This document shows positions 18,239-41,883 of a stretch of DNA of 64,000 bases, one piece after another. Positions within the stretch are counted from its first letter, which is position 1. The number at the start of each line of letters is the position of its first letter. The notes beneath the pieces are model-generated. The model worked only from the letters and a program-made list of their open reading frames with translations. It did not search any database and was not told the DNA's origin. This DNA comes from Bacillus sp. NP157 (GTDB lineage Bacteria; Pseudomonadota; Gammaproteobacteria; Xanthomonadales; Rhodanobacteraceae), in assembly GCA_018889975.1 (NCBI GenBank), contig CP076546.1, positions 3,100,001 to 3,164,000 of the forward strand, given 5' to 3'. The translations under genes and the position numbers were made by a program.

Positions 18239-18284
18239 GCGTAGCCTCCAATCCCGGGACGCCCATGGTGGCGCATTTGACTTC

Positions 18285-18300
18285 GGACGTCCGGACGGCT
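18285..18300. promoter_or_regulatory. MetJ-box-like tandem octamers upstream of metE
   Basis: GGACGTCC followed directly by GGACGGCT, each matching 6 of 8 positions of the enterobacterial met box AGACGTCT, in the spacer between TTGACT (18277-18282) and TAATTT (18300-18305). The flanking sequence TTCGGACGTCC is repeated at 55311-55320. No metJ gene is in the window, so the binding protein is unknown. Confidence 0.5.
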
Positions 18301-18314
18301 AATTTCGCCGACGC

Positions 18315-18510
18315 CAACGGTCTTTATCTCTTTATTCGAATATAGAGATAAAGCTAAGAGGGAAGCCGGTGCGAATCCGGCGCTGCCCCGCAGCGGTATG
18401 TGGAGACGACGTCCGTCAGACGCACTGGGCCAGGCCGGCCCGGGAAGCGACGGCGAAGGCGGCATGCGCAGGCGTGCCACATCCACGAGCCCGAAGACCT
18501 GCCGCCAGCC
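18315..18510 (+). ncRNA. Cobalamin riboswitch
   Basis: The leader of metE carries the conserved elements of an adenosylcobalamin-type riboswitch in order: GGTC (18319-18322) pairing with GACC (18496-18499) as P1, the core AAGAGGGAAGCCGGTGCGAA, then GCTGCCCCGCAGCGGTA, a GGGAAGCGACGG segment, and the B12 box GAGCCCGAAGACCTGCC near 18488-18504. Cobalamin should lower expression of the B12-independent methionine synthase, as known for riboswitch-controlled metE genes. Downstream, GC-rich hairpins and an SD-sequestering stem form the expression platform. Confidence 0.93.
18323..18352. promoter_or_regulatory. 30-bp palindrome, metE copy
   Basis: Near-perfect 30-bp inverted repeat beginning TTTATCTC and ending GAGATAAA, with 28 of 30 positions self-complementary. 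ATC and GAT half-sites lie at positions 4-6 and 25-27, as in copies upstream of metK and metF. It sits inside the 5' part of the riboswitch, so it may also or only form an RNA stem. Confidence 0.6.
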
Positions 18511-18681
18511 TGGGCGCATGCATCGTCATGGATGCGCGTGCCCTGCCGACCTGGCCTGCCGCCTTTCCGGTGGCGTGCCGGTTCGCCCGCGGGGGCGAAG
18601 GTCGACGGCCAGCCCGCATGACACGCCCTCGCGCCGCCCCTTCGCGGCGTGGCCGGCGTGCCCGCGTGCGCCGCCCTTCCC

Positions 18682-18703
18682 TCCTCTTTTTTCCTAAAGA
18701 GGA
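18682..18703 (+). promoter_or_regulatory. Shine-Dalgarno-sequestering hairpin of metE
   Basis: TCCTCTTT (18682-18689) pairs perfectly with AAAGAGGA (18696-18703), which is the metE ribosome binding site 8 bases before the ATG. An upstream GCGCCGC/GCGGCG hairpin lies near 18630-18655. This is the expected translational off-state of the cobalamin riboswitch. Confidence 0.75.
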
Positions 18704-18711
18704 ATCGATCC

Positions 18712-20991
18712 ATGCCACACGTTACCTACCTCGGTTTTCCCCGCATCGGCCGCCGCCGCGAACTCAAGCGCCTGCTCGAGGCGCACTGGAAAGGCGAAGC
18801 TACCGCCGCCGACCTGCAGGCGACCGCAGCCACCCTGCGCCAGCGCCATTGGCGACTGGCCCGCGACGCGGGCGCCGACAGCGTCCCCGTGAATGACTTC
18901 TCGCTCTACGACCACGTGCTCGACGCCGCGGTAGCCGTGGACGCGCTGCCCGACCGCTATCGCGCGCTGCAAGGGCGCGATCCACTGGCCGCCTATTTCG
19001 CGATGGCGCGTGGACACCAGGACAAGGACTTCGACCTGCGTGCGCTGGAGATGACCAAGTGGTTCGACACGAACTACCACTACATCGTCCCCGAGCTCCA
19101 CGCCGGCCAGGCCTTCCATCCGAGGCCCGATAAAGCCGTCGGCGAATATCGCGAAGCGGTGGCCGCCGGGCACGATGCGCGCCCTGTCCTGCTCGGGCCG
19201 GTGACGTTCCTCCTGCTGTCGAAAACCGTCGATGGCAGCGACCCGCTCGCTCTGCTCGAAGCGCTGTTGCCGGCATGGCTCGGCGTGGTCGACGCCCTCG
19301 TCGCCGCGGGTGCCACCTGGATCCAGGTCGACGAGCCGGCGCTGGTGCTCGACCTGTCCGACGCGGCGCGCGACGCCTTCCGCCGCGCGTACGCCGTGCT
19401 TGCGCAACGCTCGGCGGCAAAGGTCATCCTCGCGACCTATTTCGGCGCGCTCGGCGCCAACCTCGACCTCGCAGCCGCGCTGCCGGTGGCCGGCCTGCAC
19501 GTCGACCTCGCCCGCGCGCCGGAGCAGCTGGACGCCGTCGCCGCCGCGCTGCCCGTGGATCGCGTGTTGTCGGCCGGCCTGCTCGACGGTCGCAACGTGT
19601 GGCTCAGCGATCCGTCGGTGATGGCCCCGCGTCTCGAGCGCCTGCGCGAACGAATCGCCGACGGCCGCCTGTGGCTGGCACCCTCCTGCTCCCTGCTGCA
19701 CGTGCCGATCGACGCCACCGAGGAGAAACAGCTGCCTGGCGACACCGGCCACTGGCTGTCGTTCGCGAAGCAGAAGATCGAAGAGCTGCGCCGCTATGCC
19801 GACGCGGCGCTCGGCTCGACGGCCGCCGCGGATGCGCTGGCGCGACAGCGCGACATCGTCGCGGCGCGCCACACGGCACCCACCGTGGTTCGTGCCGACG
19901 TGCGCGCCCGCGTCCGTGCGCTCACCCCGCAGTCCAGCCAGCGGCGTTCCGGCTTCGCCCACCGCGCCGCCGTCCAGCAGGAACGCTTCGGCCTGCCGCC
20001 GCTTCCTACAACCACGATCGGCTCGTTCCCGCAGACCAGCGACCTGCGCCTCGCTCGGGCGGCGTTCAAGTCGGGCAAGCTCGACGCCGGGGCGTACCAC
20101 GGCCTGCTCGAGGATGAAGTGCGTCGCGCGGTGCGCTTCCAGGAGGATGCCGGCCTGGACGTGCTCGTCCACGGCGAGCCCGAGCGCAACGACATGGTCG
20201 AATACTTCGGCGAGCAACTGGACGGCTACGCGTTCACGAAGAACGGCTGGGTGCAAAGCTACGGATCGCGCTGCGTCAAGCCGCCGATCATCTACGGCGA
20301 CGTCGCCCGCCCGGCACCGATGACCGTCGGCTGGTCGTCGTTCGCCCAGTCGCTCACGTCGCGCCCGATGAAGGGGATGCTGACCGGTCCGGTGACGATG
20401 CTGCAGTGGTCCTTCGTACGCGACGACCTGCCGCGCGCCGACGTCTGCCGACAGCTGGCGCTTGCCCTGCGCGACGAAGTGCATGACCTGGAGCGCGCCG
20501 GCATCGGCATCGTCCAGATCGACGAACCCGCGCTTCGCGAAGGCTTGCCGCTGCGTCGCGCCGACTGGAAGGCCTACCTCGCGTGGGCGGTCGAGGCCTT
20601 CCGGATCACCGCCGGCGGCACCAGCGATGCCACCCAGGTGCACACCCACATGTGCTATTCGGAGTTCAACGACATCATCGAGGCGGTCGCCGCCATGGAC
20701 GCCGACGTCATCTCCATCGAAACCAGCCGCTCGCGGATGGAACTGCTGGATGCCTTCACCCGCTTCCGCTATCCCAACGGGATCGGCCCGGGCGTCTACG
20801 ACATCCACTCCCCCCGGGTGCCGGCGGAGGCCGAAATGGCCGACCTGCTCGCCCGGGCCCTGCAGGTCCTCGCCCCCGGGCAGCTGTGGGTCAACCCCGA
20901 TTGCGGGCTGAAGACCCGCGGCTGGAAGGAGGTAGGCGAAGCCCTGCGCGGCATGGTGGCCGTGGCCCGCCAGGCCCGCGAACGCCTGTAG
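18712..20991 (+). CDS. metE: Cobalamin-independent methionine synthase
   Basis: 759-residue MetE, which transfers the methyl group of 5-methyltetrahydrofolate (polyglutamate) to homocysteine without B12. It has two barrel domains, with zinc and substrate residues visible in HTHMCYSEF (His, Cys), in ETSRSRMELL, and in NPDCGLKTR (Cys near residue 725). Length and termini are normal. The ATG follows AAGAGGA. Control is by the cobalamin riboswitch, with possible extra operators upstream. The TAG stop is supplied by the first bases of a REP element. metK follows 209 bp downstream and metF supplies its methyl donor. Confidence 0.97.
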   Translation: MPHVTYLGFPRIGRRRELKRLLEAHWKGEATAADLQATAATLRQRHWRLARDAGADSVPVNDFSLYDHVLDAAVAVDALPDRYRALQGRDPLAAYFAMARGHQDKDFDLRALEMTKWFDTNYHYIVPELHAGQAFHPRPDKAVGEYREAVAAGHDARPVLLGPVTFLLLSKTVDGSDPLALLEALLPAWLGVVDALVAAGATWIQVDEPALVLDLSDAARDAFRRAYAVLAQRSAAKVILATYFGALGANLDLAAALPVAGLHVDLARAPEQLDAVAAALPVDRVLSAGLLDGRNVWLSDPSVMAPRLERLRERIADGRLWLAPSCSLLHVPIDATEEKQLPGDTGHWLSFAKQKIEELRRYADAALGSTAAADALARQRDIVAARHTAPTVVRADVRARVRALTPQSSQRRSGFAHRAAVQQERFGLPPLPTTTIGSFPQTSDLRLARAAFKSGKLDAGAYHGLLEDEVRRAVRFQEDAGLDVLVHGEPERNDMVEYFGEQLDGYAFTKNGWVQSYGSRCVKPPIIYGDVARPAPMTVGWSSFAQSLTSRPMKGMLTGPVTMLQWSFVRDDLPRADVCRQLALALRDEVHDLERAGIGIVQIDEPALREGLPLRRADWKAYLAWAVEAFRITAGGTSDATQVHTHMCYSEFNDIIEAVAAMDADVISIETSRSRMELLDAFTRFRYPNGIGPGVYDIHSPRVPAEAEMADLLARALQVLAPGQLWVNPDCGLKTRGWKEVGEALRGMVAVARQARERL

Positions 20992-21053
20992 GAGCGCGCT
21001 CGCGCGCGATTGGGGTGCCCAGGTGGCCCCAATCGCGCGCAGGCGCGGCCCAA
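20988..21053. repeat. Inverted REP pair after metE
   Basis: A plus-orientation GTAGGAGCGCGC-type copy (20988-21010) and an imperfect inverted copy (about 21031-21053) flank a GATTGGGG/CCCCAATC stem. Together they can form one long hairpin that begins at the metE stop codon. It may protect the metE mRNA end or attenuate read-through into metK. Confidence 0.75.
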
Positions 21054-21162
21054 CAAGGGGACGGCCGGATAATCCCGGGCTGAACATCCATGCAATCGTC
21101 ACCCCCGGGGGGTACCCTTGGCGCTGCAATCCGTCGCAGGGCCGTGTATCATGGCGCGCCCT

Positions 21163-21192
21163 TTTATCTCTTTATCCGTAAAGAAGGATATA
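21163..21192. promoter_or_regulatory. 30-bp palindrome, metK copy
   Basis: Imperfect 30-bp inverted repeat starting with the same 13 bases as the metE copy (TTTATCTCTTTAT) and ending GGATATA. The ATC and GAT half-sites have the same spacing as at metE and metF. It ends 8 bp before the ATG and includes the AAGGA ribosome binding site; a TATCAT -10-like hexamer lies upstream at 21147-21152. Confidence 0.6.
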
Positions 21193-21200
21193 TCCCCTCG

Positions 21201-22421
21201 ATGAGCAGCTATCTCTTCACCTCCGAGTCGGTCTCCGAAGGCCATCCGGACAAAATCGCCGACCAGATCTCCGACGCCGTCCTCGATGCCATCCTGGCTC
21301 AGGATCCCCGTGCGCGCGTGGCCTGCGAAACGCTGGTGAAGACCGGCGTGGCCATCGTCGCGGGTGAAATCACCACCAGCGCCTGGATCGACCTCGAGGC
21401 GCTCACCCGCAAGGTCATCCTCGACATCGGCTACGACTCCTCGGAAGTCGGCTTCGACGGCGAGACCTGCGGCGTCCTGAACCTGATCGGCAAGCAGTCG
21501 CCGGACATCAACCAGGGCGTGGACCGCAAGAAGCCCGAAGAACAGGGCGCCGGCGACCAGGGCCTGATGTTCGGTTACGCCACCAACGAAACCACCGAGT
21601 TCATGCCGGCGGCGATCCACTACGCCCATCGCCTGGTCGAGCAGCAGACCAAGGTCCGCAAGAAGAAGAACTCGCCGCTGCCGTGGCTGCGTCCGGACGC
21701 GAAGAGCCAGGTCACCCTGCGCTACAACGAAGCCGGCGAAGCCATCGCGATCGACGCCGTGGTGCTCTCCACCCAGCACGATCCGGGCGTGAAGCAGAAG
21801 GACCTGGTCGAAGGCGTGCGCGAGCTGATCCTCAAGCCCGTGCTGCCGGCCAAGCTCCTGCACAAGGACACCAAGTTCCACATCAACCCGACCGGCAAGT
21901 TCGTCATCGGTGGCCCGGTGGGCGACTGCGGCCTCACCGGCCGCAAGATCATCGTCGACACCTACGGCGGCTGGGCTCGCCACGGTGGTGGTGCGTTCTC
22001 GGGCAAGGATCCGTCCAAGGTCGACCGTTCGGCTGCCTACGCCGCACGCTACGTCGCCAAGAACATCGTCGCGGCCGGCCTCGCCGACCGTTGCGAAATC
22101 CAGGTCAGCTACGCCATCGGCGTGGCCGAGCCGACCTCGATCTCGGTCACCACCTTCGGCACCGGCAAGATCCCCGACGAGAAGATCGAGAAGCTGATCC
22201 GCAAGCATTTCGACCTGCGCCCGTACGGCATCATCCAGATGCTCGACCTGGTGCACCCGATGTACCAGCCGACCGCGTCGAACGGCCACTTCGGCCGCAA
22301 GCCGTACGAGATCACCGACAAGAACGGCAACACGTTCACGGCGTTCTCGTGGGAAAAGACCGACAAGGCCGAGATCCTGCGCGACGCCGCCGGTCTGGGC
22401 GCCAAGGTTTCCCGCAAGTAA
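21201..22421 (+). CDS. metK: S-adenosylmethionine synthetase
   Basis: 406-residue MetK, which forms SAM from methionine and ATP. Visible motifs are [16 protein letters not shown] at the N-terminus, [12 protein letters not shown] (central ATP/methionine loop), and the [19 protein letters not shown] signature with the catalytic lysine. This is the standard bacterial length. It follows metE on the same strand, separated by a REP pair and its own leader with the 30-bp palindrome. A strong intrinsic terminator follows 26 bp after the stop. Confidence 0.98.
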
Positions 22422-22447
22422 GCGGAACGCTTCAGGTCATACCGGAA

Positions 22448-22475
22448 CGGGCGCCCCAGGGCGCCCGTTTTTTTT
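22448..22475 (+). terminator. Intrinsic terminator of metK
   Basis: CGGGCGCC-CCAG-GGCGCCCG hairpin (8-bp stem) followed by eight T. Confidence 0.93.
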
Positions 22476-22611
22476 GCCTCGCGATGGCCGGCCGCTGGCG
22501 ACGGGTCATGCGAACGGCAACGCCACCAGCGTGGTACCTGCTTACCCGCGAGGGTCACGGCGACTTCATGGCCGGGGTGAGACACCTTGGCATCGTTAAA
22601 GGAGAAGCCCC

Positions 22612-23136
22612 ATGTCGAACGCCCTGCCCCGCATCCTCGCCACTGCCTTCCTGGCCGCCGCCATGCCCATGGCCGCCTTCGCCCAGCACACGGACTCGAA
22701 GGGCGGCACGCCCACCGACGCGGGCTTCGTGTCGAACGCCAGTGGCGCCGGGCTCGCCGAGATCGAAGCGTCGAAGCTCGCCGCGACCAACGCCGGCTCG
22801 GACAAGGTGAAGACCTTCGCGCAGAAGATCATCGCCGACCACACCAAGGCAGGCGATGAACTGAAGACGCTCGCCGCAGGCGATCGCGGTTATGCAACCG
22901 CCGACTCCCCGCCGCCGGCGGACCAGAAGGACATCGACGCGCTGAAGACGCTCACCGGCGCGGCCTTCGACAAGGAATACGCGAAGGTGATGGTCGCCGA
23001 CCACGAGAAGGCCGTCGCGATTTTCGAGGTGGAAGTCGAGAAGGGTTCGAACAAGGACCTGCAGGCCTTCGCGAAGAAGACCCTACCGACCCTGAAGGAT
23101 CACCTGAAGATGGCCCGCGCGCTCCCCACCAAATAA
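22612..23136 (+). CDS. DUF4142 periplasmic protein
   Basis: 174-residue secreted protein with signal peptide MSNALPRILATAFLAAAMPM followed by AAFAQ. The rest is a helical DUF4142 domain with characteristic segments DKVKTFAQKIIADHTKAGDE and KVMVADHEKAVAIF, a ferritin-like four-helix arrangement. The molecular function of the family is unknown; many members in Xanthomonadales are small stress-associated periplasmic proteins. The ribosome binding site AAAGGAG is strong. It is monocistronic, with a REP element and the IS directly downstream. Confidence 0.85.
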   Translation: MSNALPRILATAFLAAAMPMAAFAQHTDSKGGTPTDAGFVSNASGAGLAEIEASKLAATNAGSDKVKTFAQKIIADHTKAGDELKTLAAGDRGYATADSPPPADQKDIDALKTLTGAAFDKEYAKVMVADHEKAVAIFEVEVEKGSNKDLQAFAKKTLPTLKDHLKMARALPTK

Positions 23137-23144
23137 CCAACCCT

Positions 23145-23178
23145 GTAGGAGCGCGCCTGCGCGCGATGTAGGAGCGGC
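23145..23178 (+). repeat. REP element, second copy cut by the IS
   Basis: A complete plus-orientation copy (23145-23167) is followed by the start of a second, GTAGGAGCGGC (23168-23178). The second is interrupted two bases later by the IS3-family element, so the IS inserted at or in a REP pair. Confidence 0.7.
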
Positions 23179-23219
23179 AATGTAGTGGTCAAGTCCTCGT
23201 GGACCACGCCGTAGGCGTT

Positions 23220-24005
23220 TTATGCCGCCAGCCACTCGAAGGTGGCTGGCGGCACGTCGTTTAGCCGCGAGTGCGGCCGCTGCTGGTCGTAATAGATCAG
23301 GAAGCTGGAGAAGTCCTTCGTGGCCTCGTCGAACGTCGCGTAGCCACTGGTCGGCATCCATTCGTGTTTCAGGGTGTGGAAGAAGCGTTCGACGACAGCG
23401 TTATCCCAGCAGTTTCCGCGGCGACTCATGCTCTGCCGGATGGATCGCCGGGCGAGGAAGTCGACGAATCGTTGCGCGCTGTACTGGCAGCCCTGGTCGG
23501 AGTGGAACAGCAGTGGCCCCTGCGGTTGCCGGTGCGCCAGTGCCAGCTCCAGAGCCTGCTCGGCCAGGTAGGCATCGGCCATCGAGCCGGTTGCCCAGCC
23601 CACGATGCGCCGGGAAAACAGGTCCATCACGATGGCGATATACAGCCATCGCCGCCCCACCCGAACCTGCGTGATGTCACCGGCCCAGGCCACATCCGGC
23701 GCGGCAGGATCAAACTCGCGATTGAGGTCGTTGTCGGCCACGATGGCTGGCTTGGTCGCTCGTCGATAGTGGGCGTACGGGCGGCGCCGACGCTTCAGGC
23801 CCAGCTGTTTGATCAGGGTCCGGGCCCTGTAGCGACCAACGTCATGGCCCTGATTACGCAAGCTCGCCGACAGCCGGCGCGACCCCAGGCTGCATCGCCC
23901 CTGCTCGTGTAACGTCCGCGCAGCCTTGGCTAGCACCGGCCCGATCGTCCGCTCGCGTCGCTCGCGCCGCCCGGCGTAGTAGCTGCTGCGGGACACGCCC
24001 GCCAC
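23220..24005 (-). CDS. IS3-family transposase, OrfB (DDE catalytic part)
   Basis: Retroviral-type integrase domain with the DDE residues in AGDITQVR (first Asp), HSDQGCQYS (second Asp) and NAVVERFFHTLKHE (Glu), preceded by an HTH_21-like segment. About 261 residues are given from the GTG at 24005, but the frame is open further upstream (AAWLVTQAVDAARGTIPVRR). The active protein is expected to be an OrfAB fusion made by -1 frameshifting at 24098-24104. No stop or frame disruption is visible. Confidence 0.93.
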   Translation of the reverse strand: MAGVSRSSYYAGRRERRERTIGPVLAKAARTLHEQGRCSLGSRRLSASLRNQGHDVGRYRARTLIKQLGLKRRRRPYAHYRRATKPAIVADNDLNREFDPAAPDVAWAGDITQVRVGRRWLYIAIVMDLFSRRIVGWATGSMADAYLAEQALELALAHRQPQGPLLFHSDQGCQYSAQRFVDFLARRSIRQSMSRRGNCWDNAVVERFFHTLKHEWMPTSGYATFDEATKDFSSFLIYYDQQRPHSRLNDVPPATFEWLAA

Positions 24006-24046
24006 CGCGCAAGCCCGCCTTACCGGGATCGTGCCCCTCGCCGCAT

Positions 24047-24343
24047 CTACCGCTTGCGTGACCAGCCAGGCGGCGGATTTTGGAGAAGGGCATCGAATTT
24101 TTTTAGGAATTCGACCTCGCCCTCCAACTGGGCAACGCGTTTGCGAAGCGCGGCCATTTCCTTGTCCTGCTCGGCCTTGCCAGGCGGATGGCTCCGACGC
24201 TCGCGCTCGGCAGCCACCCAGCGCCTAAGCGCAGTGGGACCCAGCCCAAACATCTTGCACACAGCCAACACCGGCTGCCCCTGGTCCACCACCAGGCGTA
24301 CGGCTTCCTTCTGCACAGAAGGGTCTACAACTCGATATCCCAT
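24047..24343 (-). CDS. IS3-family transposase, OrfA (DNA-binding part)
   Basis: 98-residue HTH_Tnp_1 protein: KEAVRLVVDQGQPVLAVCKM is the helix-turn-helix, followed by a leucine-zipper-like helix (KEMAALRKRVAQLEGEVEFL) used for multimerisation. The slippery run lies at codons 84-86 (LKK). Termination in its own frame gives the regulatory OrfA; a -1 slip gives the full transposase. Confidence 0.92.
   Translation of the reverse strand: MGYRVVDPSVQKEAVRLVVDQGQPVLAVCKMFGLGPTALRRWVAAERERRSHPPGKAEQDKEMAALRKRVAQLEGEVEFLKKFDALLQNPPPGWSRKR
24098..24104 (-). other. Programmed -1 frameshift site of the IS
   Basis: Seven consecutive A on the coding strand within CTA AAA AAA. Slipping back one base joins OrfA at LKK to the OrfB frame continuing IRCPSPKSAAWLVTQ, with no stop in between, as in other IS3-family elements. 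Confidence 0.85.
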
Positions 24344-24428
24344 GGATCACCTCGGTAGAAAGTTTGCTCCTACCTCGTGGTCCATGGGAATTAGGCCACT
24401 ACACAACTATCCTCCCGAACCGCGATCC

Positions 24429-25574
24429 TCAGCCGTTGCGGTTCGAGCCCGAGAGCACGTCGACCCACACGGCTAGCACGAGGATGACGCCCTTGATGAT
24501 CATCTGCCAGGAGTTGTCGACGTCCATCAGCTGCATGCCGCTGTCGAGGCTGGCCATCACGAGGGCACCGATGAGGGCGCCGTAGACCGTGCCCGAGCCG
24601 CCGCGCATGGAGGTCCCGCCGATGAAGCAGGCCGAGATGGCGTCCAGCTCGCCGCCGGTGCCGGCCGAGGGCGAACCCGAGCCGGTGCGCGCGACGGTGA
24701 TGATGCCGGCGAACGCGCACATCAGGCCCATCAGGGCAAACACCACCAGCTTGACCCGGGCCACGTTCACGCCGGAGAGGCGCGTGGCTTCCATGTTGCC
24801 GCCCACCGCGTAGATGTGGCGGCCGAACACCGTCTGCGTCGAGACGTAGGTGAACACCGCCAGCAGGCCGAGCAGGATCATCACCGGGATGGGGATGCCG
24901 TTGGCGTCGTTGAGCATGCGCACGAAGCCGAAGATGAAGGCGCCGATGGCGACCAGCTTCGCGACGTCGATCCACAGTGCACCCTGCTGCAGGCCCAGCT
25001 TGCCGCGCCGCACGCGACGGCGCGCGGTGAGCGCGACCATGGCGAGGAAGATCACGCCGCCGATCCACACCGACACGCTCGGCGGCACGAAGCCCTGGCC
25101 CAGCGCGATGAGGTTGTCCGGCGCCGGCGCGATCGTGGAACTGCCGGTGATGTAAAGCACGATGCCGCGGAAGGCGAGCATGCCGCCCAGGCCGACGATG
25201 AACGACGGCACGCGCATCTTGGTGACGACGTAGCCGTTGAACGCGCCGATGGCCAGGCCGAGCAGGAGCACGGCGCCGATGGCCGGCCACGTACCCCAGC
25301 CCTGGTTCACCGTGAGGATGGCGACGACGCCACCGAGCAGGCCGAGCTGTGAGCCGATCGACAGGTCGATCTCGCCCGCGATGATGATGAACACCATGCC
25401 GCAGGCCAGCATGCCGGTGATCGCCATCTGGCGGAACAGGTTCGAGAGGTTGCCCGGCGTGATGAAGGCCTGGTCGGTCTTCACGTGGAAGAACACCCAG
25501 ATCAGCGCGACCGCGATGAGCAGCGCAAGGATCTTGTAGCGGACGAACAGTTGCTGGATTTGCTGGGCCTGCAT
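24429..25574 (-). CDS. xylH: Xylose ABC transporter permease XylH
   Basis: 381-residue inner-membrane permease of the BPD_transp_2 family with about ten hydrophobic helices. The EAA-like loop region includes GGNMEATRLSGVNVARVK, typical of sugar permeases. Identity as XylH follows from the operon xylA-xylB-xylF-xylG-xylH. It lies 39 bp after xylG and is the last gene; the IS begins 25 bp past its stop, so the original operon terminator has probably been displaced or separated. Confidence 0.94.
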   Translation of the reverse strand: MQAQQIQQLFVRYKILALLIAVALIWVFFHVKTDQAFITPGNLSNLFRQMAITGMLACGMVFIIIAGEIDLSIGSQLGLLGGVVAILTVNQGWGTWPAIGAVLLLGLAIGAFNGYVVTKMRVPSFIVGLGGMLAFRGIVLYITGSSTIAPAPDNLIALGQGFVPPSVSVWIGGVIFLAMVALTARRRVRRGKLGLQQGALWIDVAKLVAIGAFIFGFVRMLNDANGIPIPVMILLGLLAVFTYVSTQTVFGRHIYAVGGNMEATRLSGVNVARVKLVVFALMGLMCAFAGIITVARTGSGSPSAGTGGELDAISACFIGGTSMRGGSGTVYGALIGALVMASLDSGMQLMDVDNSWQMIIKGVILVLAVWVDVLSGSNRNG

Positions 25575-25613
25575 GGAGAAGCCTTCCTATGACGCGTCAA
25601 TGGTTCGGGTGGA

Positions 25614-27161
25614 TCAGGCCGCGTGGGCGGGCCCTTCGGCGGCATGTGAGATCGCCGCGGCGAGCACCTGCTCCTGGGTCAGGCCAACGTTCTTGAAGTC
25701 GCCGCGCAACTTGCCTTCGCCGACGACGAGGACGCGGTCGCTGACGCCCAGCACTTCAGGCATCTCGGACGAGACCATGATGATGGCCACGCCCTTCGCC
25801 GCCAGTTCGAACATCAGCTTGTAGATGTCGTACTTGGAGCCGACGTCGACGCCACGGGTGGGCTCGTCGAGGATCAGCACCTTGGGACCCGGCAGCAGCA
25901 TCTTGGTCAGCACGGCCTTTTGCTGGTTGCCGCCGGAAAGACCGACGATGGCCAGCTCCGGGCTTGCCGTCTTCACGCGCAGGCGCTTGATCTCGGCATC
26001 GACGACCTGGAGTTCGGCCTGGCGGTCGATCTGGCCGGCGTGGGCGTAGTGCGAGAGCGTGGCGAGCGTGATGTTGTCGCCGACGCCGAGCAACGGGACG
26101 ATGCCCTGGCGCTTGCGATCCTCCGGCACGAGCGACAGCCCGGCCTTGATCGCCTGCTCGGGCGACTTGATCCTGATCGGCTTGCCTTCGAGCACCAGCT
26201 CGGCTTCCGAACGGCCTGGGTAGGCGCCAAAGATCGCCGAGACCAGCTCGGTACGGCCCGCGCCCACCAGGCCGGCGATGCCGAGGATCTCGCCGCGACG
26301 CACCGCGAACGAAATGTCGTCGACGCGCTTGCGGTTCGGGTTCGCGAGGTCCCAGCAGGTGACATGGTTCGCCTCGAAGATCACCTCGCCGATCTCGTGC
26401 TCGACCTTCGGGAACAGGTTCTCGATGTCGCGACCGACCATGGCGGTGATGATCGAATGCGTCGTCATCTCGCTCATCGGCTTGGTGACGATGTGCTTGC
26501 CGTCGCGGATCACGGTGACCGTGTCGCAGACGCGCGCGACTTCCTCGAGCTTGTGCGAGATGTAGACGCAGGCGACCCCGTCGCGCTTCAGGTCTTCGAT
26601 GATCGACAGCAGGGTATCGGTCTCGGACGAGGTCAGCGAGGACGACGGTTCGTCGAGGATCAGCAGGCGGGCATTCTTCACCAGCGCCTTGGCGATCTCG
26701 AACAGCTGCTGGTAGCCACCGCCGTAGTTCATCACCGGCGCCGCGACGTTGACGTCCTTCAGCTTGAGCCGCGCCAGCAGGGCCTCGGCTTTCGCATACA
26801 TGGCGTCGTAATCCATCACGCCGCCGAACTTGCGGATCTCGTTACCGAGGAAGATGTTCTCCGCGACGGAGAGCTGCGGCACCAGCATCAGTTCCTGGTG
26901 GATGATGACGATGCCCGCGTTTTCACTGTCACGCACGGAGTAAGCCTTGAGCGGCTTGTCGTCGAACAGGATCTCGCCTTCCCAGGTTCCATACGGGTAG
27001 ACGCCGGACAGCACCTTCATCAGCGTGGACTTGCCCGCACCGTTTTCGCCGCACAGGCCGACGCACTCGCCCGGCCGTACGGCCAGGTTGATGCCATTGA
27101 GCGCGCGCACGCCGGAGAATTCCTTGACGATGTCGCGCATCTCGAACAGGTATTCGCTCAC
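25614..27161 (-). CDS. xylG: Xylose ABC transporter ATP-binding protein XylG
   Basis: 515-residue protein with two ABC domains. The first has Walker [10 protein letters not shown], signature GGGYQQ and Walker [11 protein letters not shown]; the second has a degenerate Walker [10 protein letters not shown], signature LSGGNQQK and [15 protein letters not shown]. This is usual for sugar importers. A GTG start at 27161 is chosen because GAGGAAGG precedes it by 7 bases and the length then matches XylG (about 513). It is separated from xylF by a repeat-rich spacer of 237 bp. Confidence 0.95.
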
Positions 27162-27200
27162 CTTCAAACCTTCCTCGACCTGGATACCGGCCATCAACGT

Positions 27201-27386
27201 GTAGGAGCGCGCCTGCGCGCGATGGGTGCTGCGCGGGGTATCCACCCATCCATCCGTCCATCCACCCATCCATCCATCAAGTGACTTTCGGATATCGAGC
27301 GATGGATGGATATCGAGCGATGGGTGGATATCCCACCATCGTTGGATATCCCACGCAGCCCCCATCGCGCGCAGGCGCGCTCCTAC
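27201..27386. repeat. BIME-like cluster between xylF and xylG
   Basis: Two inverted REP copies (27201-27223 plus; 27364-27386 minus) enclose a run of CATC/CATCCATC tetranucleotides (about 27240-27278) and three near-direct repeats built on GGATATCGAGCGATGG (about 27292-27356). It fills most of the xylF-xylG gap and can form a long hairpin. Such structures inside operons often stabilise the upstream mRNA part. Confidence 0.85.
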
Positions 27387-27398
27387 AACATCAGTTGC

Positions 27399-28412: not shown

Positions 28413-28442
28413 GCTGTTCTCCATCGTTATGGACTCGCCCCT

Positions 28443-29948: not shown

Positions 29949-29961
29949 GTCGGGTCTCATA

Positions 29962-31278: not shown

Positions 31279-31345
31279 AACGATTCCTTGACGATCGAGG
31301 GGACGAATCCCATCGATGCTCGTGATGCGCGGCCACAAGCGCAAT

Positions 31346-31378
31346 TGCGATTTCCCGCGCGGCTTCCTGCGTTTTTCC
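31346..31378. promoter_or_regulatory. Candidate XylR operator in the xylA-xylR gap
   Basis: Direct repeats TGCGATTTCC (31346) and TGCGTTTTTCC (31368), 22 bp apart, close to two helical turns. AraC-type regulators such as XylR bind two direct half-sites at about this distance. The repeats lie 68-100 bp upstream of the xylA start. Assignment is by position and geometry only. Confidence 0.5.
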
Positions 31379-31430
31379 TGCCGCGACGCGTCATGGCCTG
31401 TAAGCGCGTTCCCTGCTAGTTTTGTCGACC

Positions 31431-32609: not shown

Positions 32610-32637
32610 TCGCTGCCGGCACGGACCGCTTGCCCCC

Positions 32638-33681: not shown

Positions 33682-33709
33682 CCCGCCCCGGGCGGGTTAA
33701 ACTGGGCGG

Positions 33710-35578
<1,869 letters not shown>

Positions 35579-35587
35579 GCGCCACCG

Positions 35588-38293
35588 TTAGCCGGTGTTC
35601 TGCAGGCCCTGGGAGACGCCGTTCACGCAGGCAACCAGGGCATTGAGCAGGGCGTCGTCCTTGCCACCGGTGGCGCGCCAGCGCTTCAACAGGTCGACCT
35701 GGAGCAGGCTCATCGGGTCGACGTAGGGGTTGCGCAGGCGGATGGAGTTGGCGAGGCGCGGTTCGCGCTGGAGCAGCTCGCTCGCGCCCTTCAGCTTGAG
35801 CACCCAGCCCACCGTGCGCTCGAACTCTTCGCGCACCTTGGGGAAGAAGCGCTCGTGCAGCGGCCCGGCGAGCTCCGAGAAGGCCTCGGCGATGTCGATG
35901 TCGGCCTTGGCCAGCACCATTTCCACGTCGTCGAGCATGGTCGCGAAGAACGCCCATTCCTGGGCCATCCGGGCGAGGGTTTCCTCGCCGTGCTCGCGAG
36001 CGACCACGTCCAGCGCGCTGCCCAATCCATACCAGCCGGTGAGCACGGCGCGGCACTGCGTCCAGGAGAACACCCACGGGATCGCGCGCAGGTCTTCGAC
36101 GCCCTTCATGCTGCGCCGGCGTGCCGGGCGCGAGCCGAGGGTCATGCGCTCGATGACGTCGATCGGCGTGGCGCCACGGAAATAATCCACGAAGCCATCC
36201 ATGTCGACGAAGGCGCGGTAGGCCTTGCGGCTTTCGTCGGACAGCCGGGCCATGACGTCCTTCCAGCCCGACTCGCGCACTTCAGCGACGCGCGGCCGCA
36301 GCGATGCGCGCATGACCGCGCCGAGGGTCTGTTCGAGGTTGCGCACCGCGAGCGCGCGGATGCCGTACTTGCGGTGGATCACCTCACCCTGCTCGGTCAC
36401 GCGCAATACGCCGGCGACCGAACCACGCGGCGACGCCATCAGCGCGGGCGTGATCCGCGAACCGCCACGGCTTGCCGAGCCACCGCGGCCATGGAAGAAG
36501 GCGATGCGGATGCCGGCTTTCGCCGCGACCTCCAGCAGTTCGACCTGGGCGCGCTGCAGGCTCCACTTCGAGGCCACCGTGCCGCCATCCTTGCCACTGT
36601 CGGAATAGCCGAGCATCACCCACTGGCGATCGCCACGCGCCTTCAGGTGCGCGCGGTAGACGGGGTCATCGATCAGGGCCTGCAGGGTTGCCGGGCCGCC
36701 CTTCAGGTCGTCGATGGTCTCGAACAGCGGCGCTACGTCGAGCGGCACGCGCCCCTCTTCCAGCAAGCCACCGCGGCGCGCGAGCGCCAGCACGGCAAGC
36801 ACGTCGGCGGCGGTCTCGGCCATGCTGATGATGTAGAGCCCGGTTGCCTGGTGGCCGTAACGCTTGCGTGCGTCGGCCAGCGTCGCGAACACCTCGCGCA
36901 ACGAGGTCGCTGCCTCGTTCGCGTCGCCGGCGACGAAGCTGCGTTCGCCCGCGGCGTAGGGACGCAGCGTCTTCGCACGCGCGTCGGCTTCGCGATCGGC
37001 CCAGCCACTGTCGTCCAGCAGGGCACCCAGTGCTTCGTCGTGCACGCGGGCATCCTGGCGCACGTCCAGCCGCGCGAGGTGGAAGCCGAACGTGCGGGCG
37101 CGCCAGAGCAGGCGACCCACGGCATACGCACCAGCGTGCTGCCCGCCGTTTTCCAGCAGGCTCTTCTCGACCAGCGCGATGTCGTCGACGAACTCGTCGG
37201 CCGACGCGTAGCCGTCGCCATCTTCCGCGAGCGTCGCCTCGAGGCGGGCCGCGACGAAGGCGAGGAACGAGCGGTATGGCATGTCGGCATGGCGCGGGCG
37301 GATCCGCGCCGCCGCTTCCGGCAGGCGGTCGCGATAGTGTTCGAGCCGGCGTTCGAGCTTGTCGTTGAGCTCGACCCGGTCGATGGTCTGGCTAAGCAGC
37401 CGACCGAGTTCGCCCAGCCCCTCGATGTAACGCTCGAGCACCAGCGACCGCTGTGCGGAAAGCGTGGCCGCGATGGTCTGCGCATTGACGTTGGGATTGC
37501 CGTCCATGTCGCCGCCGACCCAGGTAGCGAAGCGCAGCAGGCGTGGAATCGCCACGCCTTCGCCGTAATGCTCGACGATGGCCTGTTCCAGCGCTTCGTA
37601 AAGTGCCGGCAACACGCGGTAGATCGGCCGGGACACGTAGAAGCCGACGTGGTCGAACTCGTCCGACACGCTGGGCCGCACGGGCGAGGCTTCGGCGGTC
37701 TGCCAGCCAGCGGACAACGCCATCAGGATGCGCGCATCGTCGTCGCGCAATTCCTGCGGCGTCCGCGTCGGATCGAACTCGTCGACGAGGGCACGGACGA
37801 TTTCCTGTTCCTTCTCGAGCAGCGAGCGGCGTACGGCCTCCGTCGGATGCGCGGTAAAGACCGGCTCGACATCCAGCTTGCCGAGCAACGCGCCCAGCTC
37901 CTCGCGCGTCACGCCTTCCGCCTTCAACTGGCCCAGCACCGCGGCCAGCGACTCCGGCTGCGCGCCCTTGCCCTCGCGCTGGTAATCGCGGCGACGACGG
38001 ATCCGATGCACCCGCTCGGCGGTGTTCACCGCCTGGAAGTACGTCGCGAACGCGCGGGCCAGCGCCTCCGCGTCGGCCGCATCCAGCCCCGTGAGGCTCT
38101 CGGCGAGCGCATCCACCGCGGCCCCGCTACGGCGCCGATGGATCGCCGTGGTGCGCACCTGCTCCACCCGCTCGAAAAAGGCCTGTCCGCCCTGCTCGGC
38201 CAGCATCTGGCCCACCAGGGCACCAAGCCGCCGGACGTCCTCGCGCAGGGGGCCGTCGTGGGGAAGGAATTCGGGATCGCGCGTGGGTTGCAT
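35588..38293 (-). CDS. ppc: Phosphoenolpyruvate carboxylase
   Basis: 901-residue anaplerotic enzyme making oxaloacetate from PEP and bicarbonate. Catalytic His lies in [14 protein letters not shown], the PEP-binding loop is [25 protein letters not shown] is conserved, and the C-terminus ends in the canonical QNTG. Length is standard. It converges with uup, with only 9 bp between stops. Upstream lies the ahcY leader on the other strand; the 38294-38460 part of the gap shows no gene. Confidence 0.97.
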
Positions 38294-38521
38294 GAGGTCG
38301 CTCGCGTGCAGTGAGACTTCGAAGATAGCGAAAAAGGGTGAAGGAGCGGAGATGGGGGATGGGAAACGGGGGCGCGAGGGCCGACGATCGCCTGAGGTAC
38401 GACCGCCGCTGTACTGGCGTTAACGCATCCGTGGGCTACCGGCGCCGTCAGTCGCTCGCCGGATAATCGCCCCCACTTCCCGCCTCCCGCCCCCATTCAT
38501 CGCCCCATCGCAATTCCGCGA

Positions 38522-38620
38522 TATAATCCCCGACTGTTCCGCCCGCCGAGGGGCGCTGCGACCGTAGGGGCTCCCCCGATGGCCAGGCTCGGCGCGGCTT
38601 CCCGCACAACGGCGCCCCCG
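38522..38620 (+). ncRNA. SAH riboswitch of ahcY, with promoter -10
   Basis: A perfect TATAAT (38522-38527) precedes the conserved elements of an S-adenosylhomocysteine riboswitch: GCCGAGGGGCGCTGCGACC (from 38545), then CCAGGCTCGGCG (38583-38594) pairing back to CGCCGAG as P1, and ACAACGGCGCCCC (38606-38618) pairing with GGGGCG as the pseudoknot stem. This matches the class found upstream of ahcY in proteobacteria, where SAH turns expression on. The aptamer is about 38541-38620. The start codon follows 24 nt later, so control is probably translational or at an overlapping structure near the ribosome binding site. Confidence 0.9.
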
Positions 38621-38643
38621 TAACCATCCGGAGCTACGCCACC

Positions 38644-40074
38644 ATGAACGCCGTCACCAAAGACACCGCGACGCAGGACTTCAAGGTCCGCGACATCTCC
38701 CTCGCCGCCCTCGGCCGCCGCCGCATCCGCATGGCGGAAGAAGAAATGCCGGGCCTGATGCAGATCCGCGCCCGTTATTCGAAGGAAAAGCCGCTCAAGG
38801 GCGTGCGCCTTTCCGGCTCGCTGCATGTCACCAAGGAAACCGCCGTGCTCGCCGAGACCCTGCGCGAGCTGGGTGCCTCGGTGCGTTGGGCGTCCTGCAA
38901 CATCTTCTCCACCCAGGACGACGTGGCCGCGGCGCTTGCCGCTGGCGACCTGCCGGTGTTCGCCTGGAAGGGCGAGTCGCTGGAAGAGTACTGGGACTGC
39001 ACGCTCGACATGCTGACCCATCCGGGTGAACTCGGCCCGCAGCTGATCGTGGACGACGGTGGCGACGCCACCCTGTTCATCCACAAGGGCGTGGAGCTCG
39101 AAGACGGCAGCGACTGGGTTAATACCCCGAGCGGCAACCACGAAGAGCAGGTCATCAAGGACCTGGTCAAGAAGACCGCCGCCGCGCGCCCGGGCTGGTT
39201 CAAGAAGATCGCCGCCGAATGGAGGGGCGTGTCGGAAGAGACCACCACCGGCGTCCATCGCCTGTACCAGCTCGCCGAAGCCGGCAAGCTGCTGGTCCCG
39301 GCCATCAACGTCAACGACTCGGTCACCAAGTCGAAGTTCGACAACCTCTACGGCTGCCGCGAATCGCTCGCCGACGGCATCAAGCGCGCGACCGACCTGA
39401 TGGTCGCGGGCAAGGTCGCCGTCGTCTGCGGTTATGGCGACGTGGGCAAGGGCTGCGCGCATTCGCTGAAGGGCTTCGGTGCCCGCGTGATCGTCACGGA
39501 AATCGATCCGATCAACGCCCTGCAGGCGGCGATGGAAGGCTTCCAGGTCACCACGATCGAAGACACACTCGGCCTCGGCGACATCTATGTGACCACCACG
39601 GGCAACAAGGACATCATCACGCTGGAACACATGGCGAAGATGAAGAACAACGCCCTGGTCTGCAACATCGGCCACTTCGACAACGAGATCCAGATGGACC
39701 GCCTGAACGGCGCGAAGGATGTCACCCGCGAGAACATCAAGCCGCAGGTCGATCGCTACACCTTCGCCACCGGCAACAGCATCTACATGCTGGCCGAAGG
39801 CCGCCTGGTCAATCTCGGCTGCGCCCATGGCCATCCGAGCTTCGTCATGTCGAACAGCTTCTCGAACCAGACCCTCGCCCAGCTCGACCTGTGGGCGAAC
39901 AAGGACAAGTACGAGAACACGGTGTACCGCCTGCCGAAGAAGCTCGACGAAGAAGTCGCCCGCCTGCACCTCGAGCAGATCGGCGTGAAGCTGACCGTGC
40001 TCACCAAGGACCAGGCCGACTACATCGGCGTGCCGGTGGAAGGCCCGTACAAGCCGGATCATTACCGCTACTAA
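38644..40074 (+). CDS. ahcY: Adenosylhomocysteinase
   Basis: 476-residue SAH hydrolase, which splits SAH to adenosine and homocysteine and relieves product inhibition of methyltransferases. NAD-binding [15 protein letters not shown] is visible, with [12 protein letters not shown]-like [10 protein letters not shown], the catalytic-type THPGELG region and the canonical C-terminus KPDHYRY. It has the family's central insert seen in many bacteria (about 40 residues more than the short form). Controlled by an SAH riboswitch and followed by a REP element and an intrinsic terminator. Confidence 0.97.
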
Positions 40075-40099
40075 GCAGCGGCTTCGCTGACTGTGTAGG

Positions 40100-40121
40100 T
40101 CGCGCGCAGGCGCGCTCCTAC
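40100..40121 (-). repeat. REP-like hairpin element
   Basis: Minus-orientation GTAGGAGCGCGC-type copy between the ahcY stop and its terminator. Confidence 0.72.
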
Positions 40122-40132
40122 AGGGAACCAAG

Positions 40133-40161
40133 GCGCCACCCTCACGGGTGGCGCTTTTTTT
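40133..40161 (+). terminator. Intrinsic terminator of ahcY
   Basis: GCGCCACCC-TCAC-GGGTGGCGC (9-bp stem) followed by seven T. Its last two bases overlap the stop codon of the convergent lipoprotein gene. Confidence 0.93.
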
Positions 40162-41173
40162 ATGGCGCCTTGTTAGCCTGGGATGCACCAGGCTCGCGAC
40201 GACTCAGGGTCATCGTGTCGACGCCCTGCACTTCGGTGGAGTTGATGTTGAATTGCGAGAGGACGTTGACGCCCAGCAGCAGTGCGCAATCCCGGCATGC
40301 GAGTGCCTTCACGTTCTCAAGATCGAAAGCACCGACGTGCAGATGCTCGATGACCACTTCGCGGGCGACGGTGCTGTGTCCATCGGCCAGGCGGATGGTT
40401 ACCTGGCCGCGGGTCACGCGGTAAGGCACCTTGGAATCGGCGAGGAAAATGTCGTCCACGGCCGTGGTCGTTGCGCCGGTGTCGACGACGAAGGCTTCGG
40501 TCGGACCTTTCCCGGCCTGCACCGGTGCGTAGTACGTGTTGTCCAGCTTCACGAGGCGGAGCTGTACAAGCTCGCCCTGCGTCGCCGCGCCGTCGTCGGG
40601 TAGCGATTCGATGGCGACGCGCTGGCCGGTGAAGTACGCATCGTGCCCGAGCGCATCCAGGTGCTGGTCGAATTCGGTGAGCAGGGCCAGCGCTTCGTGG
40701 CGACGATGCTGCCGAACCAGGAGCTTGGCGAGATTGCCGCGCACGTCGACCAGCGATGGCACGAGCTTCAGCGTCTTGTACGACCAGTCGATCGCTTCGT
40801 CGGTGCGGCCGACCTTTGCCAGGCTGTCCGCGTAGCCAGCGAACACATCGTAGGTGCCCACGCCATCGGCGAGCACCTGTTGGTACACCGCGATGGCCTC
40901 CTTGTCCTTGCCTTCCTGGTTGAGCACGAACGCCAGCGTTCCAAGCCCCTTGTCGTCGGTCGGGCGCAGTTTCACGTAGGCCTGCACCGCAGCTTCGGCG
41001 CACGGAAGGTCGGCTTTCCGCGCACAGTCGATGTACCGCTGCATGAGTTCGGGCGCCGTGGTCGGCAACGGCGCGCTCGTGGCGACCGTCGTCTCGCCGC
41101 CTTCCTTCGAACACGCGCACGCCAGCGCGACCGCGAGGCACAGTGCCCCGGCACGGATCTTCGTCAACACCAC
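40160..41173 (-). CDS. TPR lipoprotein with retropepsin-like domain
   Basis: 337 residues. An N-terminal lipoprotein-type signal (GALCLAVALACACSKEG, cysteine at about 19-21) is followed by TPR-like repeats (about 45-190, e.g. LGTLAFVLNQEGKDKEAIAV) and a C-terminal retroviral-type aspartic protease domain (about 215-325) with FVVDTGATTTAVDD and LLGVNVLSQFNINST. The DTGA catalytic motif is intact. Single-domain retropepsins can dimerise; a bacterial lipoprotein that combines TPR and this fold suggests an envelope protease or sensor. Function unknown. It converges on ahcY. Confidence 0.75.
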   Translation of the reverse strand: MVLTKIRAGALCLAVALACACSKEGGETTVATSAPLPTTAPELMQRYIDCARKADLPCAEAAVQAYVKLRPTDDKGLGTLAFVLNQEGKDKEAIAVYQQVLADGVGTYDVFAGYADSLAKVGRTDEAIDWSYKTLKLVPSLVDVRGNLAKLLVRQHRRHEALALLTEFDQHLDALGHDAYFTGQRVAIESLPDDGAATQGELVQLRLVKLDNTYYAPVQAGKGPTEAFVVDTGATTTAVDDIFLADSKVPYRVTRGQVTIRLADGHSTVAREVVIEHLHVGAFDLENVKALACRDCALLLGVNVLSQFNINSTEVQGVDTMTLSRREPGASQANKAP

Positions 41174-41271
41174 ATTGCCCCCTGTCCCTTGTATGCCGGC
41201 CGCCGCGTGGCGCCTGGCGGGCCCTGTCTGGCCCGCGCACAGGATGCTACGGGGCGGGGCTTACTTCAACG

Positions 41272-41727
41272 TCAGCGCACGCTGGTAAGCGTCGACTGTT
41301 CGAAGTCGATCGGCTTGCCGTCTTCGCCACACAGGTGGCCGGCGAGGTCGGCGCGCAGCACCTGGTCGCCGAAGCGGACTTCAACGCGCGCGGGGTCGAC
41401 GCAGCGGCTCTTGTCGAAGACCTCCCCCGACACCCAGCGCAGGGAAGCCTGCGCGCTGGCACCGGGTTCCAGCCGCACCGGCACGACGGCCGGGCCAGGA
41501 TGCATGCCGACCGGCGCCTTGCGTGCCGCCGGCAGCACCGCGCCCTGGGCGTCCTTCAACGACACCATCGGCAGGCCGGGCACGGTGCACGCTTTGCCGG
41601 CCTTGTTCGTCACGACCAGATAGCTGCCGCCGTGGGACATGCCGTCTAGGTCGCCATCGCGCCCGTCCGTGGCCAGCGACAACATCCCGGCGGTACAGGG
41701 CGCGACGACAGGGGTGAATACGGGCAT
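41272..41727 (-). CDS. DUF4232 protein
   Basis: 151-residue protein of the DUF4232 family, a beta-sandwich domain of unknown function. Family features include the early CTAGMLSLA, the SHGGSYLVVTNKAGKACTV strand pair and the late VRFGDQVLRADLAGHLCGE. Paired cysteines (CTAG, ACTV, RCVD, HLCG) suggest disulfides and an extracytoplasmic location, although no signal peptide is apparent from ATG 41727; the GGAG site six bases upstream supports this start. It is divergent from metF. Confidence 0.7.
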   Translation of the reverse strand: MPVFTPVVAPCTAGMLSLATDGRDGDLDGMSHGGSYLVVTNKAGKACTVPGLPMVSLKDAQGAVLPAARKAPVGMHPGPAVVPVRLEPGASAQASLRWVSGEVFDKSRCVDPARVEVRFGDQVLRADLAGHLCGEDGKPIDFEQSTLTSVR

Positions 41728-41822
41728 CGGAAGCTCCAGGGGAAACGGTCGGTGACGACTCATTTTGCAGGGTGATGCTGAACGAGACGGCGTGGCGCCG
41801 ACGGCCTCTCGCACCATGAATA

Positions 41823-41852
41823 GCCATCTTTCCATCTGGATGGAAAGATATA
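41823..41852. promoter_or_regulatory. 30-bp palindrome, metF copy
   Basis: Inner arms ATCTTTCCATC and GATGGAAAGAT (41826-41849) are a perfect inverted repeat around TG. ATC and GAT fall at positions 4-6 and 25-27 of the 30-bp unit, as at metE and metK, and the unit ends GATATA as at metK. It overlaps a TATACT -10-like hexamer (41851-41856), the expected place for a repressor. Confidence 0.68.
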
Positions 41853-41883
41853 TACTCGGCACATCGCTCTACGGTGTCGACCC

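What the first reader, a model, noticed from the sequence alone, without database searches (positions are those of the whole stretch)
18323..41852. Shared 30-bp palindrome at metE, metK and metF: an unnamed methionine-cycle regulator
At 18323-18352, 21163-21192 and 41823-41852 the half-sites ATCTyT and GATAwA have identical spacing. At metF it overlaps a TATACT -10. SAH-responsive ArsR-family SahR is known to control methionine-cycle genes in proteobacteria and would be a candidate, but no such regulator gene is in the window. The metE copy also lies in the riboswitch, so one sequence may act as both DNA operator and RNA stem.
Basis: partly seen in the sequence, partly recalled or inferred. 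Interest (0 to 1): 0.72.

Follow-up and report, generated by a model that had tools for sequence, protein, structure and literature searches.

The report
SamR operator inside metE B12 riboswitch
A short palindrome in front of several methionine-cycle genes of a Luteibacter-like bacterium is most likely the binding site of an already named repressor, SamR, and at the metE gene the same letters also form a hairpin of a vitamin B12 riboswitch, a double use that appears to be kept in related bacteria.

Summary
The three sites are real and far above chance. They form one motif, ATCTyT-nn-ATCnnGAT-nn-ArAGAT. It fits the published description of SamR, the ArsR-family, SahR-like regulator predicted in Xanthomonadales in 2014 (PMC4239095): a 24-bp palindrome sharing ATC-10nt-GAT with SahR. 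The regulator is therefore named. Its gene (ArsR HTH plus methyltransferase domain, 308 aa) lies elsewhere in this genome, with the motif 5 nt before its start codon, followed by metH1-metH2. A motif model (trained on sites that include them) finds four sites in the 4.9-Mb genome: metE, metK, metF, samR-metH. This favours SAH as SamR's effector over the published guess, SAM.

What looks new is metE. There the operator is the first hairpin of the cobalamin riboswitch aptamer: in 20 of 26 metE riboswitches of the family, 7 of 7 in a second family, 0 of 2 in two others, and 0 of 40 non-metE cobalamin riboswitches. Pairing is better kept there than at other SamR sites. Binding, repression and effector are inferred.

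The parts
18277..18305 (+). metE promoter, by sequence: TTGACT, 17-bp spacer, TAATTT
   Evidence: coordinates checked; a TTGAC box at similar distance recurs upstream of metE riboswitches in relatives
18285..18300 (+). met-box-like element GGACGTCCGGACGGCT in the spacer (possible MetJ site)
   Evidence: 14 of 16 match here; >=13 of 16 in the 72-bp promoter windows of 14 of 26 family metE leaders versus 5 of 1261 control windows
18301..18520 (+). cobalamin riboswitch aptamer of metE
   Evidence: RF00174, 110.2 bits, E 9.8e-27
18322..18353 (+). first hairpin of the aptamer, made of the operator and four more pairs
   Evidence: in the MFE fold; 14 pairs, 95.7% of cells paired in 30 aligned hairpins, 8 pairs with changes on both sides
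18326..18349 (+). SamR operator (24-bp core) of metE
   Evidence: same place in 20 of 26 family metE riboswitches
18712..20991 (+). metE, cobalamin-independent methionine synthase
   Evidence: NF003556 1095.6 bits, Meth_synt_1/2
21166..21189 (+). SamR operator of metK, between the putative -10 (TATCAT 21147-21152) and the start codon
   Evidence: same place in 30 of 30 fetched metK loci
21201..22421 (+). metK, methionine adenosyltransferase
   Evidence: TIGR01034 592.4 bits
38499..38522 (+). weak SamR operator of ahcY (13 of 18), ending on the first base of the putative -10 TATAAT 38522-38527
   Evidence: same place, score 14-15, in the 3 other sampled genomes of the genus; 27 of 59 in the family; not reported by the model search at E<=0.5
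38542..38624 (+). SAH riboswitch of ahcY
   Evidence: RF01057, 48.9 bits
38644..40074 (+). ahcY, adenosylhomocysteinase
   Evidence: TIGR00936 629.3 bits
41826..41849 (+). SamR operator of metF, one base before the putative -10 TATACT 41851-41856
   Evidence: same place in 29 of 30 fetched metF loci
41884..42708 (+). metF, methylenetetrahydrofolate reductase
   Evidence: TIGR00676 340.1 bits

Best explanation
The palindrome is the operator of SamR, an ArsR-family repressor with a C-terminal methyltransferase-like domain. Shown here by comparison: the same 24-bp motif stands at samR-metH1-metH2, metK, metF and metE, and more weakly at ahcY, each time in the promoter or over the first transcribed bases. 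At metE the operator is the first hairpin of the cobalamin riboswitch aptamer, and pairing is kept there beyond what the other sites show. Inferred: a SamR dimer binds the DNA while the SAM cycle is slack and blocks RNA polymerase (at metF and ahcY it fills the promoter spacer up to the -10; at metE, metK and samR it sits just downstream of the presumed start site). Binding SAH (or SAM) in the methyltransferase domain changes its DNA affinity. At metE the 30 bp serve twice: as duplex DNA they are read by SamR; once transcribed they form the aptamer stem that lets cobalamin switch metE off when B12-dependent MetH can do the work. SAH is the likelier effector because ahcY, already under an SAH riboswitch, is also a target.
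For: Regulator: 308-aa protein, HTH_5 at 15-60 and Methyltransf_11 at 151-244, relatives in 115 of 121 genomes of the order; motif just upstream of its start in 30 of 30 fetched loci; metH1 next to it in 29 of 30, the exception (L027) being cut by a contig end; letters QPRVSTHLA[KR]L and SAM motif VLD[IV]ASGDG in 30 of 30. Regulon: 4 genome-wide sites, all at methionine genes; metK 30 of 30, metF 29 of 30; ahcY 27 of 59. Background: of 1917 control windows 7 reach 13 of 18; six of these are metK operators and one is a chance 13. Dual element: operator in the first hairpin of 20 of 26 family metE riboswitches, 7 of 7 in a second family, 0 of 40 non-metE cobalamin riboswitches (best scores 8-11 of 18). 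Pairing at ten variable or flanking positions averages 8.28 at metE (32 sequences) versus 5.57 at the other genes (96), 0 of 20000 permutations as large; 57 both-sided changes versus 20.8 in shuffles and at most 16 in slid controls.
Against: No binding, footprint or expression data. Six of 26 family metE riboswitches keep a hairpin but not the operator (L041, L055, L059, L061, L063, L064), two riboswitches of two further families lack it (L327, L328), and one metE (L057) has neither, so it is dispensable. The own ahcY site is weak (13 of 18, not reported by the model at E<=0.5), and 32 of 59 family genomes lack an in-register ahcY site. Rows for the pairing tests were chosen because they carry the operator, so their invariant letters are partly selection; a palindromic operator can itself yield some 'covariation'; related sequences are not independent, so permutation and shuffle counts are not probabilities, and one measure is unimpressive (pairs changed on both sides: 8 versus 6.2, reached by 30 of 500 shuffles). 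The fold of the own leader is only slightly better than shuffles (z -1.70). Leyn et al. saw no SAM-cycle gene but metK in the SamR regulon and favoured SAM.
Confidence: 0.82

Rival explanations
1. At metE the element is only the riboswitch hairpin, and its likeness to the operator is chance or inheritance without DNA function.
For: The hairpin is part of the RF00174 structure, and 6 of 26 family metE riboswitches have it without the operator.
Against: 0 of 40 non-metE cobalamin riboswitches, all from 23 of the metE-bearing genomes, carry the motif, while metE riboswitches of two families do; the motif equals the one at samR, metK and metF, which stands outside any such riboswitch.
Confidence: 0.1
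2. At metE the element is only a DNA operator that happens to lie in a leader; the RNA hairpin has no role.
For: Operators of dimeric repressors are palindromic, and the sites at other genes show partial symmetry.
Against: At metE pairing reaches four positions beyond the operator core and the variable core positions pair more often than at the other genes; the hairpin lies where the riboswitch model expects one.
Confidence: 0.07
3. SamR is the regulator but its effector is SAM (co-repressor), as Leyn et al. suggested.
For: metK is a target, and SAM-cycle genes other than metK were not in the published regulon of four genomes (PMC4239095, section 8; Table 1).
Against: ahcY carries the operator in 27 of 59 family genomes next to an SAH riboswitch; the target set then resembles the SahR core (sahR, ahcY, metH, metF, metK) given in the same paper.
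Confidence: 0.3
4. The sites belong to MetJ, which this genome also has.
For: A MetJ gene is in 59 of 59 searched family genomes (own protein is a NCBIfam MetJ equivalog above its cut-off).
Against: The motif does not look like met boxes (AGACGTCT, recalled); separate met-box-like elements lie at metE promoters; the motif stands at the samR start in 30 of 30 loci.
Confidence: 0.03

Closest known systems
SamR regulon of Xanthomonadales (Leyn et al. 2014, PMC4239095)
   Same: ArsR-type SahR homologue; 24-bp palindrome sharing ATC-10nt-GAT with SahR; samR beside metH1 and metH2; metE, metF, metK as targets
   Different: ahcY is a target here; metE, said there to be mainly MetR-controlled with SamR control in Xylella, carries the operator here inside a cobalamin riboswitch; a term search of the paper's main text finds 'cobalamin' once, for a transporter
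SahR regulon (SAH-responsive; Desulfovibrio, rhizobia)
   Same: core targets sahR, ahcY, metH, metF, metK; autoregulation; ArsR family (passages of PMC4239095 and PMC8877191)
   Different: published SahR motif is a 20-bp palindrome and SamR is only about 30% identical to SahR (PMC4239095); effector of SamR untested
Cobalamin riboswitch RF00174 upstream of metE
   Same: full-length aptamer above the gathering score, upstream of the B12-independent synthase
   Different: its first hairpin holds a protein operator
SAH riboswitch RF01057 at ahcY
   Same: full-length match above the gathering score just upstream of ahcY
   Different: in part of the family a SamR operator lies in the promoter just upstream

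Membership tests
SamR | ArsR-family HTH protein, distant SahR homologue | tested here: met
   HTH_5 E 1.1e-14 plus methyltransferase domain; identity to a SahR or a published SamR sequence was not measured
SamR | samR next to metH1 and metH2 | tested here: met
   S-methyl_trans and Met_synt_B12 genes follow in L004; metH1 in 29 of 30 loci, one cut by a contig end
SamR | 24-bp palindrome with ATC-10nt-GAT in the common upstream region | tested here: met
   ATCTyTnnATCnnGATnnArAGAT upstream of samR, 14-18 of 18, in 30 of 30 loci; the paper's logo figure was not available
[quoted passage not shown]
   metE, metF, metK found; all 7 matches at E<=0.5 lie on metE, metK, metF and samR, so none at metB, metX2 or hom in this genome
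SamR | effector SAM or SAH | not testable with these tools
   only indirect: ahcY as target, SAM motif I kept in 30 of 30
SahR | 20-bp palindrome | tested here: not met
   the conserved motif spans 24 bp
SahR | ahcY in the regulon | tested here: met
   27 of 59 family genomes; own site weak
Cobalamin riboswitch RF00174 | covariance-model score above the gathering cut-off | tested here: met
   110.2 bits versus 31.5
MetJ operator | tandem 8-bp met boxes (recalled) | tested here: not met
   the 24-bp motif is not of this form; separate met-box-like elements exist

The most novel reading that the evidence does not exclude
A repressor operator has been built into the variable hairpin of a riboswitch aptamer and kept under double selection, as DNA for SamR and as RNA for the cobalamin aptamer fold, across two families; metE thus integrates the methylation state, B12 and, in many strains, MetJ within about 80 bp, and MetJ boxes and the embedded SamR operator replace each other in evolution.
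Probability: 0.6. Interest if true: 0.65.

Novelty: new variant of a known kind. Interest (0 to 1): 0.52.

Why it matters
If true, it is a natural case of one short sequence read in two forms by two sensors: duplex DNA by a SAM/SAH-type repressor and single-stranded RNA by a cobalamin aptamer. It shows how a structurally needed but sequence-tolerant aptamer hairpin can be taken over as an operator, and suggests that riboswitch leaders should be scanned for buried operators. The ahcY sites give an argument on the effector of SamR, a question that the 2014 paper left open.

Tried and rejected
A first loose pattern on the window returned nothing (badly written). 'Unnamed regulator' was rejected after reading parts of Leyn et al. 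2014. Two other ArsR-type HTH places exist in the genome (L002, L003); not pursued, because the genome-wide model search has no match there. Met boxes with up to 2 mismatches genome-wide: 19 matches per strand versus 14 for the reversed control, too weak for a MetJ regulon; only the position-specific comparison at metE is informative. Literature on an operator inside a riboswitch aptamer: searches listed nothing that describes it in titles or abstract starts; I read none of those papers for this, one search showed 15 of 102 and 6 of 8, and only CC-licensed PMC papers are held, so this is weak evidence of absence. L310 (G156) scored 13 at ahcY but out of register and was not counted. L215 (Lysobacter) has the operator at the 5' edge of the RF00174 match, not in the hairpin before AGGGAA, and was not counted as embedded; it was nevertheless among the 32 metE sequences. 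L320 and L215 were left out of alignment A2 (30 of 32 rows used). Only 14 of the 27 ahcY sites entered. The row list was capped, so ahcY was then checked in the 59 family genomes separately. The metE search of the order found metE in 17 of 121 genomes; the 9 outside the family were fetched.
Full report
1. Observation. The three sites are present as described. They share a 24-bp core, ATCTyT-nn-ATCnnGAT-nn-ArAGAT, at 18326-18349 (metE), 21166-21189 (metK) and 41826-41849 (metF). Scoring the 18 informative positions over both strands of the window, nothing else reaches 13 except a shifted register at metE and one new place, 38499-38522, at the -10 of ahcY. The metE site lies within a cobalamin riboswitch (RF00174, 110.2 bits) and ahcY has an SAH riboswitch (RF01057, 48.9 bits). 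Gene identities were checked with Pfam and NCBIfam.

2. The regulator. The window lies in a 4.875-Mb genome with three ArsR-type HTH_5 places. One is a 308-aa protein with a C-terminal methyltransferase domain. Its gene starts 5 nt from a copy of the motif (G000:C1:320150-320173) and is followed by metH1 and metH2. Relatives of the protein are in 115 of 121 genomes of the order. I had the best 30 loci: all 30 have the motif right upstream of the start, at 14-18 of 18 positions, and 29 have metH1 beside it, the other (L027) being cut by its contig end. Of 1917 control windows of the same length further along the fetched loci (mean 9.2), 7 reach 13 or more; six of these are metK operators seen behind metE, one is a chance 13. 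This is the layout that Leyn et al. 2014 gave for SamR in Xanthomonas (PMC4239095; abstract, section 8 and passages read): a distant SahR homologue, next to metH1 and metH2, with a 24-bp palindrome sharing ATC-10nt-GAT with SahR. The core here contains ATC-10nt-GAT twice, in overlap. The regulator is therefore named; SamR also appears in the 2016 regulon survey (PMC5343134, passages).

3. Regulon. A sequence-only model (R1, 91 operator rows) run on 27 metE-bearing genomes of the family gave, in the own genome, 7 matches at E<=0.5, all on metE, metK, metF and samR. R1 includes the own sites, so these E-values are not independent. Sites recur in place: metK 30 of 30 fetched loci (of 58 genomes with a match), metF 29 of 30 (of 59). 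In relatives R1 also hit ahcY promoters, 7 of them in its capped list. Looking at the 59 searched family genomes, 27 have an in-register site of 13 or more ending at the ahcY -10; one (L310) has an out-of-register 13; the other 31 show 7-11. The own site is weak (13), but the other three sampled genomes of the genus have 15, 15 and 14 at the same place. An SAH riboswitch core follows, by a simple letter pattern, in 52 of the 54 leaders. With ahcY the target set resembles the SahR core list of the same paper. This weakens its argument that SamR answers to SAM because metK was the only SAM-cycle target. [quoted passage not shown]

4. The double element at metE. metE is in 27 of 59 family genomes; 26 have an RF00174 match upstream, the other (L057) none. 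In 20 of 26 the first hairpin of the aptamer, just 5' of the conserved AGGGAA, is the operator (15-18 of 18); in six it is a hairpin of other letters. In a second family of the order 7 of 7 have it (14-16 of 18), while single metE leaders of two further families have the riboswitch without it. Named records agree in part: Xanthomonas massiliensis, Dyella sp. ASV24, Luteimonas wenzhouensis and Pseudoxanthomonas sp. z9 have it in the hairpin, Lysobacter sp. Root916 at the 5' edge; Luteibacter jiangsuensis and Dokdonella fugitiva are, by their coordinates, G074 and G159 (without). The window's genome is in the same genus as G074, hence Luteibacter by inference. Control: 40 cobalamin riboswitches not at metE, chosen's list in 23 of the metE-bearing genomes, score 8-11 of 18 anywhere in the fetched stretch.

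5. Two constraints, not one. If metE carried only a DNA operator, its symmetry should be like that at other genes. It is higher: over ten variable or flanking positions 8.28 pairs at metE (32 distinct sequences) against 5.57 at samR, metK, metF and ahcY (96), 0 of 20000 permutations as large. In 30 aligned metE hairpins 95.7% of cells pair over 14 pairs (85.5% in shuffles), with 57 both-sided changes against 20.8 in shuffles and at most 16 when slid; the number of pairs with such changes, 8 against 6.2, is reached by 30 of 500 shuffles. Pairs outside the operator core also covary (UA 18, AU 8, CG 3 at the outermost pair). If it were only RNA, the operator letters would not be expected in metE riboswitches of two families and absent from the 40 others. 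ATC/GAT are invariant in the 30 rows, but these rows were chosen for carrying the operator. The MFE fold of the own leader contains the hairpin (the fold as a whole has z -1.70). Related sequences are not independent, so none of these counts is a probability.

6. How it probably works. Promoters read from sequence place the operator in the spacer up to the -10 at metF and ahcY and shortly downstream of the presumed start at metE, metK and samR, so repression by blocking polymerase is the simplest reading. SamR keeps the SAM-binding motif VLD[IV]ASGDG in 30 of 30, fitting a SAM/SAH sensor. SAH as the releasing ligand is my preferred inference. No step of binding or ligand response has been shown.

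7. MetJ. Unexpectedly 59 of 59 searched family genomes encode MetJ (own protein above the NCBIfam cut-off; 1cma E 5e-32); the own protein has a lysine/alanine-rich tail. Table 1 of Leyn et al. has no MetJ entry for Xanthomonadales, whereas PMC7270179 (one passage) says the E. coli MetR/MetJ system appears conserved in Xanthomonas. A met-box-like element scores 13 or more of 16 in the 72-bp promoter windows of 14 of 26 metE leaders (13 in or at the spacer, L042 upstream of it) against 5 of 1261 control windows. All 6 riboswitches without the SamR operator have it at 15-16; of the 20 with the operator only 2 do (Fisher 1.2e-4; noticed first and tested afterwards, not corrected for kinship). This suggests turnover between the two repressors.

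8. Novelty. Motif, regulator and most targets: known since 2014. New as far as my searches show (listings only): the operator inside the aptamer hairpin. ahcY as a SamR target differs from what Leyn et al. report.

Noticed in passing
G000:C1:2852850-2853104 (L129:1470-2144, - strand): MetJ repressor gene whose product has a long lysine/alanine-rich, histone H1-like tail; MetJ is in 59 of 59 searched family genomes although the 2014 survey has no MetJ entry for Xanthomonadales.
   Followed up: partly
window 18285-18300: Met-box-like element in the metE promoter spacer; strong copies stand at metE in 6 of 6 relatives whose riboswitch lacks the SamR operator.
   Followed up: partly
window 55313-55328: Another met-box-like element (GGACGTCCAGACGGCC) between a divergent transporter-like gene and a gene on the + strand; one mismatch to the pattern, possibly chance.
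   Followed up: no
window 38499-38624: ahcY leader with a weak SamR operator ending at the -10, directly followed by an SAH riboswitch; stronger sites in the same genus.
   Followed up: yes
G000:C1:47695-47718 (L132, L133): Overlapping met-box-like elements just upstream of a TTGACA promoter-like sequence; the gene behind it was not identified.
   Followed up: no
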